Translations under genes and position numbers: made by a program
In this document: piece after piece, positions 15,901 through 33,527 of the stretch
Numbering within the stretch: the stretch's first letter is position 1
How the letters are laid out: every line of letters begins with the position of its first letter
Notes under the pieces: model-generated
Databases searched by the model: none
Told to the model about the DNA's origin: nothing
Seen by the model: only the letters and a program-made list of their open reading frames with translations
Assembly (NCBI RefSeq): GCF_001517915.1
Contig: NZ_LOQI01000012.1
Location: 1 to 33,717 of the forward strand
From: Oceanivirga salmonicida
GTDB lineage: Bacteria; Fusobacteriota; Fusobacteriia; Fusobacteriales; Leptotrichiaceae
DNA length: 33,717 bases
Direction: 5' to 3'

Positions 15901-16824
15901 TTACCTTAAATTTTCTTTTAAAAATTTCTTTATTATCTCCCTATATTCATCATTATATTTTCTTATTGCTTGAACATGCTTAGTATCTTTAAATACATGC
16001 ATTTCTTTGTTTTTTAGTAACTCATATACTCTTTCAGAGTTTTTAATTGGAACAAAACTATCAATATCTCCATGTAATATTAATCCTTTTAAATTAGTAT
16101 TTTTTAATCCTTCTCTTGCATCTACATAAGAAATAAAATAGCCTCCTCTAATTCTTGTAACTAAACTTGCAAAATCTAATATTGGGAAAGAAGGTAACTT
16201 AAATAATTTTTTTAATTGATAAGCCATTTGTTCTTTTAATACCAAATAACCACTATCATCTATGAAAGCCTTAACATTATCCGGCAAATTCTTATTAAGT
16301 GAATTTAATACTGTTGCTGCCCCCATACTCATTCCCGATATTACAATTTTAGCATTAGGATCTTCTTCTACTATTCTATTAGCCCACATAGCCAAATCAA
16401 CACTATCAAATCCACCCATTGATATTACATCGCCTTCACTATCTCCAAAACCTAGTAAATCAGGTGCTAACACATTGTAACCTAAGTCATAAAATAATTT
16501 AATATATATTGATACATAATATGCACTGCTTCCATAACCATGTACCATTATTACATATTTATCCGTCTTTTCTTTTTGCATAAATCTATGTGCTACTATT
16601 TTAGCACCAGTAACACTTGTTCCATATATTTTTTCATCATTTTCTAAAAACCATTTTTTATTTTCTTCTTCTTTTTCATATTTTACTGTATCGTCATCAT
16701 CTTGTGCTAATACTTCTGATGATATATTTTTAGGATTCAATGAATAATCATATAAATAATTTCCTATTCCTAAAAACACTAGTAATACAACCGTTACTAT
16801 TCCTAATAATACTTTTTTTAACAT
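15901..16824 (-). CDS. Membrane-anchored alpha/beta hydrolase
   Basis: The 307-residue product has an N-terminal hydrophobic anchor (about residues 5-27) followed by an alpha/beta hydrolase fold. Visible are MVHGYGSSAYY (oxyanion region), the nucleophile elbow GMSMGAA with serine, HGDIDSFVP supplying the acid and KHVQA supplying the histidine. All catalytic residues are in place, so it should be an active esterase, lipase or peptidase facing the outside of the cytoplasmic membrane. It resembles the YqkD/BAAT-like hydrolases of Firmicutes; the substrate is unknown. Placed between whiA (2 bases) and cls, it may take part in lipid or envelope turnover. Confidence 0.85.
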   Translation of the reverse strand: MLKKVLLGIVTVVLLVFLGIGNYLYDYSLNPKNISSEVLAQDDDDTVKYEKEEENKKWFLENDEKIYGTSVTGAKIVAHRFMQKEKTDKYVIMVHGYGSSAYYVSIYIKLFYDLGYNVLAPDLLGFGDSEGDVISMGGFDSVDLAMWANRIVEEDPNAKIVISGMSMGAATVLNSLNKNLPDNVKAFIDDSGYLVLKEQMAYQLKKLFKLPSFPILDFASLVTRIRGGYFISYVDAREGLKNTNLKGLILHGDIDSFVPIKNSERVYELLKNKEMHVFKDTKHVQAIRKYNDEYREIIKKFLKENLR

Positions 16825-28674: not shown

Positions 28675-30267
28675 TTATCTTCCATACAACTTAGTAATAT
28701 GTGATATAGCATTAGCTAAATCATCATTTAAAACAAACTCACCTATTCTCCATTGCCAATTTCCAACTGCAACTCCTGGAGTATTTATTCTTGCATCTTC
28801 TCCGTAACATAAATAATCTTGTATAGGTATTATACACATATTAGATACACTTCTTTGAGCAAGTCTTATTAAATGCCAACATATATCATCATCGTTAACA
28901 TCTAAATAATCTCTTATTTGAGCTCTTTCTACATCACTTAAATTATTATACCAACCCAATGTAGTATTATTATCATGAGTTCCAGTATAAACTACTGAAT
29001 TTTTCTCATAATTATGTACTAAATATAGGTTATCAGGGTCATTATTAAATGCAAATTGTAATATTTTCATACCTGGTAAATCAAAATCATTTTTTAATTT
29101 AATAACTTCATCAGTAAGTACTCCTAAATCCTCTGCTATTAAATTTATATTAGGAAATTCTTCAAATATTTCTTTAAAAAGGTCTTCGCCAGGCCCTTTT
29201 ATCCATTTACCATTTATAGCAGTTTTTTCTTCTGCTGGTATTTCCCAATAAGATTCAAACCCTCTAAAATGATCAAGTCTTATTATGTTATAAAGTTCTA
29301 AATTAGATTTTATTCTTAATTTCCACCATTCATATGAATTATTTTTCATTTCTTCCCAATTATATACTGGATTCCCCCATAATTGTCCTGTTGAACTGAA
29401 ATAATCAGGTGGAACTCCTGTAACTTTATCAAATACAAATAAATTAGAATTTGACCATGCATCTGCTGAATCCGTAGATACAAATATTGGTATATCTCCT
29501 ATTATTTCAATATTTTTACTATTTGCATATTTTTTTATTTTTGACCATTGTCTAAAAAATAGAAATTGCATAAATTTTTGTACATCAATATCGTGAGATA
29601 ATAATTTACTATATTTATCAATAGCTTCTTCATTTCTAAATCTAATATCATCATCCCAATTATGCCAAGATGAACCTTTAAAGTGTTTTTTTATTGACAT
29701 AAATAGCGAAAAATCATTTAACCAATATGAATGCTTAATTTTAAATTCTTCAAATTCAACATTTAACTTCTCTTTATTATTATATGCTTTTTCTAAAATC
29801 ATATTTTTAGCATAATATAGTTTCCCATAATCTACTAAATAAGGGTTATCATTTTTTAAAATTTCTATATCTTCATAAGTTAATAATTGCTCATTAACCA
29901 ATTCTTCAACATCTACTAAATACGGATTACCTGCAAATGCTGAAAAACATTGGTAAGGAGAATCATTAAACCCAGTAGGCCCTAATGGAAATATTTGCCA
30001 TAGAGTTTGACCTGCTTTTTCTAAAAAATCTATAAATTCATATGCTTTTTTACCTAATGTCCCTATTGTATATTCCCCAGAAAAAGAACTAGGGTGCATT
30101 AATATACCTGCTTTTCTTTCTCTTTTATCTCTAATTCTTTCTAATAACTCATCCAATTTACTATTATCTTTTTCTTCAATAGTAATTTCAACCTTTTTCT
30201 TAAAATCACCTAATAAAGACTTCATAGTTTTTTCAAATAAATCATCAGTTTTTTGCTTTTTTATCAT
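28675..30267 (-). CDS. malQ: 4-alpha-glucanotransferase (amylomaltase, GH77) with N-terminal extension
   Basis: The 530-residue enzyme transfers maltodextrin segments between chains and releases glucose. GH77 motifs are clear: GILMHPSSFSG, GNPYLVD, the nucleophile in IIRLDHFRGFESYWEIPA, the acid/base in IAEDLGVLT and TGTHDNNTTLGW. The usual N-terminus (GILLHP-type) begins only at about residue 53. The first 50 residues are a highly charged, probably helical stretch not found in standard amylomaltases. The start is well supported by GAGGAG and by the ATGA overlap with the ROK gene. Neighbours (ROK kinase, GapN) point to maltodextrin use. Confidence 0.93.
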   Translation of the reverse strand: MIKKQKTDDLFEKTMKSLLGDFKKKVEITIEEKDNSKLDELLERIRDKRERKAGILMHPSSFSGEYTIGTLGKKAYEFIDFLEKAGQTLWQIFPLGPTGFNDSPYQCFSAFAGNPYLVDVEELVNEQLLTYEDIEILKNDNPYLVDYGKLYYAKNMILEKAYNNKEKLNVEFEEFKIKHSYWLNDFSLFMSIKKHFKGSSWHNWDDDIRFRNEEAIDKYSKLLSHDIDVQKFMQFLFFRQWSKIKKYANSKNIEIIGDIPIFVSTDSADAWSNSNLFVFDKVTGVPPDYFSSTGQLWGNPVYNWEEMKNNSYEWWKLRIKSNLELYNIIRLDHFRGFESYWEIPAEEKTAINGKWIKGPGEDLFKEIFEEFPNINLIAEDLGVLTDEVIKLKNDFDLPGMKILQFAFNNDPDNLYLVHNYEKNSVVYTGTHDNNTTLGWYNNLSDVERAQIRDYLDVNDDDICWHLIRLAQRSVSNMCIIPIQDYLCYGEDARINTPGVAVGNWQWRIGEFVLNDDLANAISHITKLYGR

Positions 30268-31220
30268 TTTTTCTCCTCTGTCATTGCAAGATATACCGCA
30301 CCATATATACCTGCATCATTTCCTAATTTTGCTTGTTTTATTTTAAGATTTTCTAATATTGGAGGTAATGTATATGCTTTTAATTTTTCTTTTACTTTAT
30401 CAAACAGAAAATCCCCTGCTAAGGCTACTCCTCCACCTACAACTATGACATCAGGATCTAAAATATTTAAAACATATGATAATCCTAATGCTAAATAATT
30501 GGCTTCATCATCAACTATATCAATAGCCATTGCATCGCCTGCTTTTGCTGCATCAAATACATCTTTGGCTTCTATAGGTCTTTTAGTATATATTTCATAT
30601 AGGCTTGTTTTTTTATTTACTCTTAATCTTGATTCTGCTTCTCTTTCTATACCAGTTGCTGAAGCATATGCTTCAAAACATCCTCTTTGTCCACAACCAC
30701 ATAAAAGTCCATTTGGAACGATAGTTACATGCCCTAATTCTCCAGCTCCACCTATTTTACCAGAAATTATTTTGCCTGAATTAACTACACCTGCTCCTAT
30801 ACCTGTCCCTATTGCTACTCCAATTACATCTTTATAGCCTTTACCTGCTCCTACAAATACTTCTCCTAATGTTATTACATTAACATCATTATCTATATAT
30901 ACTGGTACTTCTAAAAGTTTTCTAAATTCATCTGCGACTTTTAATTCTTTTGGCCATGGAAAATTACTAAACATTTTAACTTTACTTTTTGCAATAACTG
31001 GACCTGGAACTCCTACTCCTACACAACTTAAATCTTTTATACTCAAATCTTTTTTTTCTAATTCTGATTTAAGAGTATCACATATTCTTTTTATAGTTTT
31101 TTCATAACCATATTCAGATGAAGTTTTAATGCTTGTTTTTAAAATTATATTAGCATTTTCATCTAAAACACCTATTTTAGTATTAGTTCCTCCTAAGTCA
31201 ATTCCGCCATAATATTTCAT
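30264..31220 (-). CDS. glk: ROK-family glucokinase
   Basis: The 318-residue product has the ROK ATP site GIDLGGTNTKIGV (about residues 6-18), the sugar-binding loop IDNDVNVITLGE, the GTGIGAGVV segment, the histidine in AGELGHVTI and the zinc cluster CGCGQRGCFEAYAS with three or four cysteines. It phosphorylates glucose to glucose-6-phosphate. It has no N-terminal helix-turn-helix, so it is an enzyme rather than a ROK repressor. It precedes malQ with a four-base ATGA overlap, so the glucose freed by MalQ would be phosphorylated by its neighbour. Confidence 0.93.
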   Translation of the reverse strand: MKYYGGIDLGGTNTKIGVLDENANIILKTSIKTSSEYGYEKTIKRICDTLKSELEKKDLSIKDLSCVGVGVPGPVIAKSKVKMFSNFPWPKELKVADEFRKLLEVPVYIDNDVNVITLGEVFVGAGKGYKDVIGVAIGTGIGAGVVNSGKIISGKIGGAGELGHVTIVPNGLLCGCGQRGCFEAYASATGIEREAESRLRVNKKTSLYEIYTKRPIEAKDVFDAAKAGDAMAIDIVDDEANYLALGLSYVLNILDPDVIVVGGGVALAGDFLFDKVKEKLKAYTLPPILENLKIKQAKLGNDAGIYGAVYLAMTEEKK

Positions 31221-31237
31221 TAATAAACCTCCAAATT

Positions 31238-32605
31238 TTATATATCTACTACTATACTTTTTAATTTTGTCATACTTAATATACTATGTTTTATACCTTG
31301 TACTCCCATTCCACTATCTTTTATTCCAAAGAAAGGAAAATTATCTGGTCCTCTTTGTGTTTTATTATTTATATGTACTGTACCTACTTCTAATTTTCTT
31401 GCTATATCAAATGCCATTTTAATGTTTTGTGTAAATACTGAACTTTGCAGACCATAATTAGACATATTTGCTATTTTTATAGCTTCTTCAACACTTGAAA
31501 CTCTAATTATTGGAAGTACTGGACCAAAAGGTTCTTCAAAAGCTACTTCCATATCTAAACTTACATTATCTAATAAAGTTGGGTATATTATGTTCCCTTC
31601 TCTTTTATTACTTAATACTAATTTAGCACCTTTATCTATTGCATCTTTTATTAAATTTTCTACAAAATCTGCACTTTTACTATCTATTAACGGTGTTATA
31701 TAAACACCTTCTTCCATAGGATTTCCTACTTTTAATTTAGTTACTTTTTCTTTTATTTTCTCTACTAATCTATCTGCAATTTTATCTATAACTAAAACTC
31801 TTTTTATAGCTGTACATCTTTGTCCTGAATAACTATATGCTCCTTTTACTATTTCGCTAGAAGCCTTTTCTAAATCAGCATCTTCTAATACTATGGCAGC
31901 ATCTTTTCCACCTAATTCTAACATAAGACCTTTCATTTCTGACTTATTTGATATGCCTTTTCCTACATTAGTACTACCTGTAAAATTAATAAACTTAATT
32001 GATTTATGAGTTATTATATGATCTCCTATAACTCTACCATAACCTGTTACTATTTCTAGCACATTTTTAGGTAATGCTTTATTTAATATTTTCACCATTT
32101 CATTACATACAATAGAACCCTGTGTAGGTGGTTTAAATAGGACTACATTTCCCATAATTAATGCTGGTATTATTTTTGATATAGATAAATTTATAGGGTA
32201 ATTAAATGGTGCAATACATAAGACCACTCCTAATGGTTCTCTATGTACTAAAGCCCTTTTATTAACTCCTAATCCTCTACCATCATATATTTCATCACTA
32301 ATACGAAGTGCTTCTTCAATAGTATAATATATCATTTCTATACTTCTATCTATCTCAGACAACGCATCTTTATATGGTTTAGAGATTTCCATAGCCATTA
32401 TTTTGGCTAATTTTTCTTTATCATTTTCTAATAAAACTGCACATTCTTTTAACATAGTTGCTCTTTTAATAATTTCTATATTTTTAAAATCCTCAAAAGA
32501 TTTTTCTAAATCCATGATTATACTATCAATTTTTTGAGTATTCATAGCTTCTACATAACCTAAACTCTCCTTATTTACAGGAGAAAAAATTTCTATCTTT
32601 TCCAT
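31238..32605 (-). CDS. gapN: NADP-dependent non-phosphorylating glyceraldehyde-3-phosphate dehydrogenase
   Basis: The 455-residue aldehyde dehydrogenase has IAPFNYPINLSISKI, KPPTQGS, FTGSTNVGK, the general base in LELGGKDAAI, the nucleophile in YSGQRCTAIKR and EEPFGPVLPIIRV. The stretches HINNKTQRGPDNFPFFG and SGQRCTAIKRV are close to those I recall from streptococcal GapN, which oxidises glyceraldehyde-3-phosphate to 3-phosphoglycerate with NADP, giving NADPH but no ATP. That makes GapN the best call over other aldehyde dehydrogenases. It is slightly shorter at the N-terminus than streptococcal GapN. It is part of the malQ-glk operon. Confidence 0.88.
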   Translation of the reverse strand: MEKIEIFSPVNKESLGYVEAMNTQKIDSIIMDLEKSFEDFKNIEIIKRATMLKECAVLLENDKEKLAKIMAMEISKPYKDALSEIDRSIEMIYYTIEEALRISDEIYDGRGLGVNKRALVHREPLGVVLCIAPFNYPINLSISKIIPALIMGNVVLFKPPTQGSIVCNEMVKILNKALPKNVLEIVTGYGRVIGDHIITHKSIKFINFTGSTNVGKGISNKSEMKGLMLELGGKDAAIVLEDADLEKASSEIVKGAYSYSGQRCTAIKRVLVIDKIADRLVEKIKEKVTKLKVGNPMEEGVYITPLIDSKSADFVENLIKDAIDKGAKLVLSNKREGNIIYPTLLDNVSLDMEVAFEEPFGPVLPIIRVSSVEEAIKIANMSNYGLQSSVFTQNIKMAFDIARKLEVGTVHINNKTQRGPDNFPFFGIKDSGMGVQGIKHSILSMTKLKSIVVDI

Positions 32606-32612
32606 ATAACTC

Positions 32613-33473
32613 CTACTTTAATTTATTTATCCACATTATTAATTCATCATATATTTTAAATTTATTTATTTCGTGTAAATTATCGTGTCTTCCGCCCTCA
32701 TTTTTTATTAATTTAATATTTCTTATCTTATTATTTATTTTAACCATATATTTTTTTGCTTTTTCCTGATTTATACTATAATCTTCACTTCCAAAAATTA
32801 TTAATACATTAGCATCTTCTCTAATTTTATTCAATGATTTCTTAACTTTTTTCATAAGTTTTAATTGTTCATAAAAATATATAGGTTTGGCATTAAATCC
32901 ACAATTTATATCTTTCTCATATTTTTTCAATTCTTCTTTATCTCTAGTTAAATAAGCATATTTCCCTTCTTCTTTAAAATTTTTATTGTATAAAGTTCTA
33001 TATGAATTTAAACTGCTTTCATTTAAATCAAATTGATCTTCTATCATTGTTTTTAATAACAATAAATTTATAGATATTGTCTTTTCAAAAGGTAGAGCTG
33101 ATAAAATTAGATTTTTATAATCTTTTCTAATTGCCAAATCAGATACTATTAAACTACCTAAACCATGCCCAAATAAAATTAAATCATTATGGTTTAATTT
33201 ATTAAATTTGAATAATAAAAAATTATCTATATTTTCAATTATTTTCTCTAAACCGCCTTCTCCAAAATCACTAACTTCTTTGGTTTGTAATTTACCATGT
33301 CCATTCAACTCCAAAACATATACATTAAAGCCTTTGTCATAGAAATATTTAGCAAAATGTTCGTATCTATCTATATGTTCAAATGCATCATGTATAAATA
33401 CTATATTTTTACATTTTTTTTCAATATGTTCATAACTTAGATATGGGATATCATTAAAAAATTCAAAATCCAT
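32613..33473 (-). CDS. Alpha/beta hydrolase (lysophospholipase-like) with glycine at the nucleophile position
   Basis: The 286-residue product follows the monoglyceride lipase / lysophospholipase pattern: HDAFEHIDRYEHFA near residue 28 (usually HGxxEHxxRY), LELNGHGKL, the nucleophile elbow, IIFGSEDYSIN (Asp231) and GGRHDNLHE (His263). The elbow reads LFGHGLGSL instead of GHSxG: residue 104 is Gly (GGT, 33162-33164) in place of the serine. The oxyanion HG is also changed to HD. Asp and His remain. It may be a non-catalytic relative, or use another route. There is no signal peptide. It is first in the operon before gapN (7 bases), with a clear promoter. Confidence 0.8.
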   Translation of the reverse strand: MDFEFFNDIPYLSYEHIEKKCKNIVFIHDAFEHIDRYEHFAKYFYDKGFNVYVLELNGHGKLQTKEVSDFGEGGLEKIIENIDNFLLFKFNKLNHNDLILFGHGLGSLIVSDLAIRKDYKNLILSALPFEKTISINLLLLKTMIEDQFDLNESSLNSYRTLYNKNFKEEGKYAYLTRDKEELKKYEKDINCGFNAKPIYFYEQLKLMKKVKKSLNKIREDANVLIIFGSEDYSINQEKAKKYMVKINNKIRNIKLIKNEGGRHDNLHEINKFKIYDELIMWINKLK

Positions 33474-33499: not shown

Positions 33500-33527
33500 A
33501 TTATATCATAAAAAAATGCATTTTCAA
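33500..33527 (-). promoter_or_regulatory. Promoter for the hydrolase-gapN-glk-malQ operon
   Basis: On the minus strand TTGAAA (33522-33527) is followed after 16 bases by TATAAT (33500-33505), preceded by TG one base upstream. It lies about 30 bases before the ATG at 33473, which has the ribosome binding site GAAGGGAG. Confidence 0.72.

What the first reader, a model, noticed from the sequence alone, without database searches (positions are those of the whole stretch)
32613..33473. Hydrolase-like first gene of a sugar operon lacks the nucleophile serine
The nucleophile elbow of this lysophospholipase-like protein is GHGLG instead of GHSxG (Gly104, codon GGT, one change from AGT), and the oxyanion HG is HD. 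Asp231 and His263 are retained. As the promoter-proximal gene of the gapN-glk-malQ operon it is unlikely to be decaying unnoticed; it could be a pseudoenzyme with a binding or regulatory role, or an enzyme in early decay.
Basis: partly seen in the sequence, partly recalled or inferred. Interest (0 to 1): 0.5.

Follow-up and report, generated by a model that had tools for sequence, protein, structure and literature searches.

The report
Conserved inactive lipase-like protein beside gapN
A lipase-like protein lost its catalytic serine in the common ancestor of several related bacterial genera and has been kept ever since, next to a sugar-breakdown enzyme that is missing its first strand, so it probably works without being an enzyme.

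Summary
In detail: the 286-aa ORF at 32613-33473(-) is a monoacylglycerol-lipase-like alpha/beta hydrolase (Pfam Hydrolase_4) with GHGLG in place of GHSxG. It is neither a read error nor a strain mutation. Ser->Gly is present in all 8 readable orthologues of one clade (two Oceanivirga-type, two g4 and four Streptobacillus-type genomes); Ser is kept in all 21 other orthologues of the family and in all 8 order relatives checked. Gly104 is written with three different codons across the clade. His263 is also lost in 3 of 8. dN/dS is about 0.16, and the protein evolves more slowly relative to rpoB and GapN than serine-bearing orthologues do. This is a maintained pseudoenzyme, not decay. Two changes coincide with the Ser loss: the gene abuts or overlaps gapN in 8 of 8, with glk next, and GapN lacks its N-terminal strand in exactly those 8 (0 of 23 others). 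All of this maps to one stem branch, so the GapN link is suggestive only. Best reading: a conserved non-hydrolytic partner or ligand sensor, most likely acting on GapN, the probable NADPH source in a family without G6PD (0 of 33). The GapN step is inferred and untested.

The parts
32613..33473 (-). Hydrolase_4 / monoacylglycerol-lipase-like pseudoenzyme, 286 aa
   Evidence: ORF; Pfam; AF2 model pLDDT 89, pTM 0.91; Z 31.9 to a Bacillus coagulans carboxylesterase 5o7g and about 29-30 to human MGL
33162..33164 (-). Gly104 codon GGT at the nucleophile position of the elbow (GHGLG)
33387..33392 (-). His28-Asp29, oxyanion-loop position (HG in most relatives)
   Evidence: His28 invariant in 6 Ser-less and 8 Ser-bearing representatives
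32781..32783 (-). Asp231, acid position, kept in all 8 Ser-less orthologues
32685..32687 (-). His263, base position; kept here and in 4 g5 genomes, Lys or Arg in G001, G004, G013
33500..33527 (-). promoter-like site TTGAAA-16-TATAAT with TG, 11 of 12 matches, upstream of the ORF
   Evidence: best of 13; shuffles mean 12.7, so weak as statistics
31238..32605 (-). gapN, 455 aa, Streptococcus-type GapN with catalytic motifs kept and the N-terminal strand missing
30264..31220 (-). ROK glucokinase glk
   Evidence: TIGR00744 above cut-off
28675..30267 (-). malQ, 4-alpha-glucanotransferase, 530 aa

Best explanation
Shown: Ser->Gly in 8 of 8, ancestral Ser outside, purifying selection, open frame in all, fixed linkage to gapN-glk, and loss of GapN's N-terminal strand in the same genomes. 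Inferred, my most likely mechanism at about 0.3: it is made in step with GapN through the abutting or overlapping genes, binds GapN (perhaps where the N-terminal strand was lost), and stabilises or tunes it, possibly with a lipid or acyl ligand in the old pocket. The confidence given is for the maintained-pseudoenzyme claim, not for the GapN step.
For: Alignment of 29 family orthologues plus an outgroup: Gly in 8 of 8 of g1, g4, g5, Ser in the 21 others, and GHSMG in 8 of 8 order members fetched. The clade is monophyletic in rpoB (support 0.999), hydrolase (0.997) and GapN (0.999) trees. Gly104 is spelled GGT, GGG and GGA within the clade. NG86 dN/dS in g5: hydrolase 0.163, gapN 0.107, glk 0.130 (6 pairs each); Ser-bearing hydrolase 0.135 (g3, 45 pairs), 0.111 (g6, 2 of 3 pairs usable), 0.112 (g9, 3 of 6 usable). 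Rate ratio hydrolase/rpoB: Ser-less 4.9, rest 6.4, stem 9.7 (60 bootstraps; Ser-less below rest in 60 of 60, stem above rest in 56 of 60). gapN starts -11 to +11 of the hydrolase stop in 8 of 8 Ser-less genomes, but +33 or more in the 6 Ser-bearing same-strand pairs examined. GapN N-terminal strand absent in 8 of 8 Ser-less, present in 23 of 23 others examined.
Against: No biochemical data. All coincident changes sit on one stem branch (n = 1), so they may be unrelated; genome compaction alone could fuse the genes and trim GapN. The hydrolase-gapN pairing is older than the Ser loss (7 of 21 Ser-bearing genomes have gapN directly downstream), so linkage does not by itself imply a complex. Asp231 is kept in 8 of 8 and His263 in 5 of 8, so some chemistry is not excluded in those five. 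Relative to GapN the stem rate is not raised (above rest in 40% of bootstraps). NG86 ignores AT bias, and YN00 failed for many pairs. No complex could be modelled.
Confidence: 0.8

Rival explanations
1. A maintained pseudoenzyme that binds a lipid, acyl or sugar-derived ligand, or another protein, with no physical tie to GapN; the linkage is ordinary operon inheritance.
For: MGL fold with cap helices kept in the model; pairing with gapN predates the Ser loss and is loose in Ser-bearing genomes; the C-terminal motif L-x-E-x-N-K stays invariant in the clade.
Against: Does not by itself explain the GapN truncation in the same 8 genomes or the abutting genes in 8 of 8.
Confidence: 0.3
2. Early decay: an enzyme that has lost its active site and is on the way to a pseudogene.
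For: Ser lost in 8 of 8, His lost in 3 of 8, cap deletions in G001 and G013; three Ser-lineage g3 genomes have no orthologue at all, so the enzyme can be dispensed with.
Against: Open frame in 8 of 8 across three genera, dN/dS about 0.16, rate relative to rpoB lower than in Ser-bearing lineages, Gly104 kept through synonymous change.
Confidence: 0.04
3. The ORF is kept mainly as a translational leader: ribosomes finishing it start gapN, whose ribosome-binding site lies in or near its 3' end; the protein itself is unimportant.
For: gapN start codon lies -11 to +11 of the stop in 8 of 8 Ser-less genomes.
Against: Would need only an open frame, not a low dN/dS and an invariant set of residues over 286 codons.
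Confidence: 0.08
4. Still an enzyme, using other chemistry than a serine nucleophile (for example the Asp-His pair or a moved nucleophile).
For: Asp231 kept in 8 of 8; His263 kept in the window and 4 g5 genomes.
Against: His263 is Lys or Arg in 3 of 8; no new Ser, Cys or Asp invariant near the elbow in the clade (Ser107 of the window is Ala or Gly in six of the others).
Confidence: 0.1

Closest known systems
Bacterial monoacylglycerol lipase / carboxylesterase group of Hydrolase_4 (B. coagulans 5o7g, 6khk lipase, M. tuberculosis and human MGL)
   Same: Fold, cap helices, His of the oxyanion loop, Asp and in part His of the triad
   Different: Ser nucleophile replaced by Gly throughout the clade
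NDRG proteins (NDRG3, PMC7022630: passages read)
   Same: alpha/beta-hydrolase fold proteins with the catalytic triad substituted by non-reactive residues, judged non-enzymatic
   Different: Human protein studied there; closer relationship not tested; here Asp is kept and His is kept in part
HisZ-HisGS (PMC10795190: passages read)
   Different: No homology claimed; here the complex is only proposed, and the GapN truncation is about 16 residues
Streptococcal GapN (1euh)
   Same: The downstream enzyme aligns over residues 3-455 with the YSGQRCTA, LELGGKD and TQRGPDNFPF stretches kept or nearly so
   Different: N-terminal strand missing in the Ser-less clade

Membership tests
Hydrolase_4 / MGL-like alpha/beta hydrolase (by descent) | Profile match and fold | tested here: met
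   PF12146 96.8 bits, cut-off 27; 25 of 25 members of A2 match; Z 31.9, rmsd 2.7, 284 aligned to 5o7g
Hydrolase_4 / MGL-like serine hydrolase (as enzyme) | GxSxG nucleophile serine | tested here: not met
   GHGLG here; GQGLG, GQGIG, GKGLG in the other 7
Hydrolase_4 / MGL-like serine hydrolase (as enzyme) | Catalytic Asp | tested here: met
   Asp231 in 8 of 8
Hydrolase_4 / MGL-like serine hydrolase (as enzyme) | Catalytic His | tested here: inconclusive
   Present in the window and 4 others, Lys or Arg in 3 of 8
Hydrolase_4 / MGL-like serine hydrolase (as enzyme) | Ester hydrolysis | not testable with these tools
   needs an assay
Pseudoenzyme (maintained) | Catalytic residue missing in a protein under purifying selection | tested here: met
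HisZ-like regulatory partner (works like) | Dead protein encoded beside the enzyme it is proposed to serve | tested here: met
   adjacent to gapN in 8 of 8
HisZ-like regulatory partner (works like) | Physical complex and change of the enzyme's activity | not testable with these tools
   no complex modelling on hand; needs co-purification
GapN (downstream gene) | GapN catalytic and substrate motifs | tested here: met
   alignment to 1euh and 9dla
GapN (downstream gene) | N-terminal strand K-N-L-V-N-G-E-W | tested here: not met
   absent in 8 of 8 Ser-less, present in 23 of 23 others examined
NDRG family | Sequence relationship to NDRG | not tested
   named as an analogue only

The most novel reading that the evidence does not exclude
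In one ancestor a lipase beside gapN was turned into a dedicated non-catalytic subunit of GapN: the serine was lost, GapN shed its N-terminal strand, the genes became an abutting pair, and since then a heteromeric GapN controlled by a lipase-shaped sensor has supplied NADPH in bacteria without G6PD. It would be a HisZ-HisGS-like arrangement built from quite different folds.
Probability: 0.2. Interest if true: 0.7.

Novelty: new variant of a known kind. Interest (0 to 1): 0.5.

Why it matters
Catalytically dead alpha/beta hydrolases are best known from animals and plants (recalled; for a human case see PMC7022630, passages read). A bacterial case with a placeable loss, living serine-bearing orthologues and a candidate partner in the same gene block would let the birth of a pseudoenzyme be studied step by step. 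If the GapN link is real, it would show a lipase-type fold controlling a glycolytic NADPH source in host-associated Leptotrichiaceae. Annotation pipelines are likely to label these eight proteins as lysophospholipases or alpha/beta hydrolases (not checked here), which the sequence does not support as an activity.

Tried and rejected
Read error or strain mutation: rejected. Decay: rejected. HD at the oxyanion loop as a second inactivating lesion: not clade-wide (3 of 8). Compensation by a second close copy: a PF12146 search finds further, mostly weaker alpha/beta hydrolases in most genomes; none was examined as a replacement.

Co-loss of the pair in G007 (inside the clade by rpoB): no orthologue or GapN was found there, but part of that genome seems not readable (an implausibly long open frame at its glk match), and the pair might lie there. 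I therefore do not count it as a loss. Its PF12146 match L034 is a different subfamily (GISMG).

The search for related loci with the single protein found nothing; with A1 it named Oceanivirga miroungae and Streptobacillus notomytis. Two further loci (L057, L058) were distant and were not used. The pocket could not be inspected, since no coordinates are given. The second structure job was not used. Literature: no paper on this protein or pair turned up in searches (open-licence PMC only; listings seen).

dN/dS by YN00 returned no value for many pairs, so NG86 is reported; pairs with NG86 dS of 1.5 or more, or undefined, were dropped (g6 1 of 3, g9 3 of 6). G002 (cut by the contig end) was left out of the rate and dN/dS work but kept in the Ser count. 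The rate work used the 25 genomes that had all three genes among the fetched loci, 7 of the 8 Ser-less ones among them (G004 left out: its rpoB was not fetched).

Full report
What is there. The minus-strand ORF 32613-33473 is intact and encodes 286 aa. Residues 101-106 read FGHGLG, with Gly104 = GGT at 33162-33164. It matches Pfam Hydrolase_4 (96.8 bits, cut-off 27). An AlphaFold2 model from 25 homologues is confident (pLDDT 89, pTM 0.91) and lies closest to a B. coagulans carboxylesterase and to monoacylglycerol lipases (Z 31.9 and about 29-30). The window is a whole contig of a 1,768,580-base genome. Its genus-mate is Oceanivirga miroungae (the contig of L055 has the same length as that of G001), and its size is close to the 1,769,081 bases printed for O. 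salmonicida (PMC5093955, passages read). So the source is very probably O. salmonicida, though this is not proven.

The loss is old and clade-wide. Of 33 held genomes of the family, 29 have an orthologue (three g3 genomes lack it, and G007 shows only another subfamily). In all 8 orthologues of g1, g4 and g5 the nucleophile position is Gly (GHGLG, GQGLG, GQGIG, GKGLG); in the other 21 it is Ser (G002, cut by its contig end). Eight order members fetched, of 12 order genomes whose matches had no locus, all have GHSMG, as has the outgroup L033, so Ser is ancestral. g1, g4, g5 and g7 form one clade in the rpoB tree (0.999), and the Ser-less proteins form one clade in the hydrolase tree (0.997). One Ser->Gly change on the stem is the simplest account.

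It is not decaying. Gly104 is spelled GGT (2), GGG (1) and GGA (5) in the eight genomes: the codon drifts and the residue stays. In the representative alignment, column 104 is the only one invariant in both groups but with a different residue in each (6 Ser-less, 8 Ser-bearing rows). dN/dS (NG86) among the four g5 genomes is 0.163, against 0.107 for gapN, 0.130 for glk, and 0.11-0.135 for the Ser-bearing hydrolase. On a fixed rpoB topology of 25 genomes the hydrolase/rpoB length ratio is 9.7 on the stem (95% 5.9-16.5), 4.9 within the Ser-less clade (4.0-6.4) and 6.4 elsewhere (5.2-8.0). Ser-less was below the rest in 60 of 60 bootstraps, and the stem was above the rest in 56 of 60 (point values). 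A burst followed by slower change fits a change of function rather than relaxed constraint. The ratios rest on long branches and are approximate. Against GapN the stem is not raised (above rest in 40% of bootstraps).

Is it inactive? Without the nucleophile a classical serine hydrolase cannot work (established knowledge of the fold). His263 is also gone in G001, G004 and G013, and no replacement nucleophile is conserved in the clade. Asp231 is kept in 8 of 8 and His263 in 5 of 8, which I count against full certainty. Activity has not been assayed.

The neighbour. The next gene is a GapN of the streptococcal type (522 bits to 1euh), with the catalytic motifs kept. The pairing is older than the Ser loss: gapN lies directly downstream in 7 of 21 Ser-bearing genomes, beside it on the other strand in 4, and elsewhere in 10. 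In the Ser-less clade it is directly downstream in 8 of 8, its start codon -11 to +11 from the hydrolase stop, against +33 or more in the six same-strand Ser-bearing pairs examined; glk follows in 8 of 8, while genes further out differ between genera. GapN also lacks its N-terminal strand in exactly these 8 genomes (the open frame upstream of the start is too short or unrelated), while 23 of 23 other GapN sequences have it (the 24th, G010, was not fetched). GapN itself runs faster in this clade (2.8 against 2.1 relative to rpoB). N-terminal deletions accompany changes of oligomeric state in other aldehyde dehydrogenases (PMC8160307, passages read), though those deletions are larger (56 residues).

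Most likely working. The anatomy points to a protein kept for its shape or ligand pocket and produced in step with GapN. GapN may be the main glycolytic NADPH source here: no genome of the family has a G6PD match (0 of 33), while phosphorylating GAPDH is over cut-off in 32 of 33. GapN is reported as an important NADPH source in S. mutans (PMC4518329, passages read). I propose a GapN partner (about 0.3) and, equally likely on present evidence, a ligand or protein binder unrelated to GapN. The link rests on one stem branch, so it is a coincidence of events and not a statistical association.

Known relatives. It is a member of Hydrolase_4 by descent but fails the defining test of a serine hydrolase. 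NDRG3 is the nearest described analogue that I read of a triad-less alpha/beta hydrolase (PMC7022630, passages read). HisZ-HisGS is the nearest functional analogue for a dead protein serving an enzyme (PMC10795190, passages read). Pseudoenzymes acting as allosteric partners are reviewed in PMC10211241 (passages read). I found no paper on this protein in searches.

Noticed in passing
31238-32605 (gapN) and GapN of G001, G004, G005, G013, G014, G018, G022: GapN lacks the N-terminal strand present in 23 of 23 other family members examined.
   Followed up: partly
28675-30267 (malQ): MalQ is 530 aa in both g1 genomes but 488-492 aa where seen in g4 and g5, an N-terminal extension of about 40 residues of unknown role.
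   Followed up: no
L006 (G001) and L007 (G013): Deletions of about 13 and 9 residues in the cap region of the Ser-less hydrolase.
   Followed up: no
all 33 family genomes: No G6PD C-domain match in any genome, so the oxidative pentose phosphate route seems absent.
   Followed up: no
15901-16824 (-): A second, more distant Hydrolase_4 match in the same window (G000:C12:16204-16569, 52 bits).
   Followed up: no
L038-L041 (g5 genomes): A P-type ATPase gene with an HMA domain ends at or close to the start of the Ser-less hydrolase gene, so in these species the block may be read together with a metal pump.
   Followed up: no
G003, G029, G031 (g3): These three genomes have GapN but no orthologue of the hydrolase, so the hydrolase is dispensable there.
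   Followed up: partly
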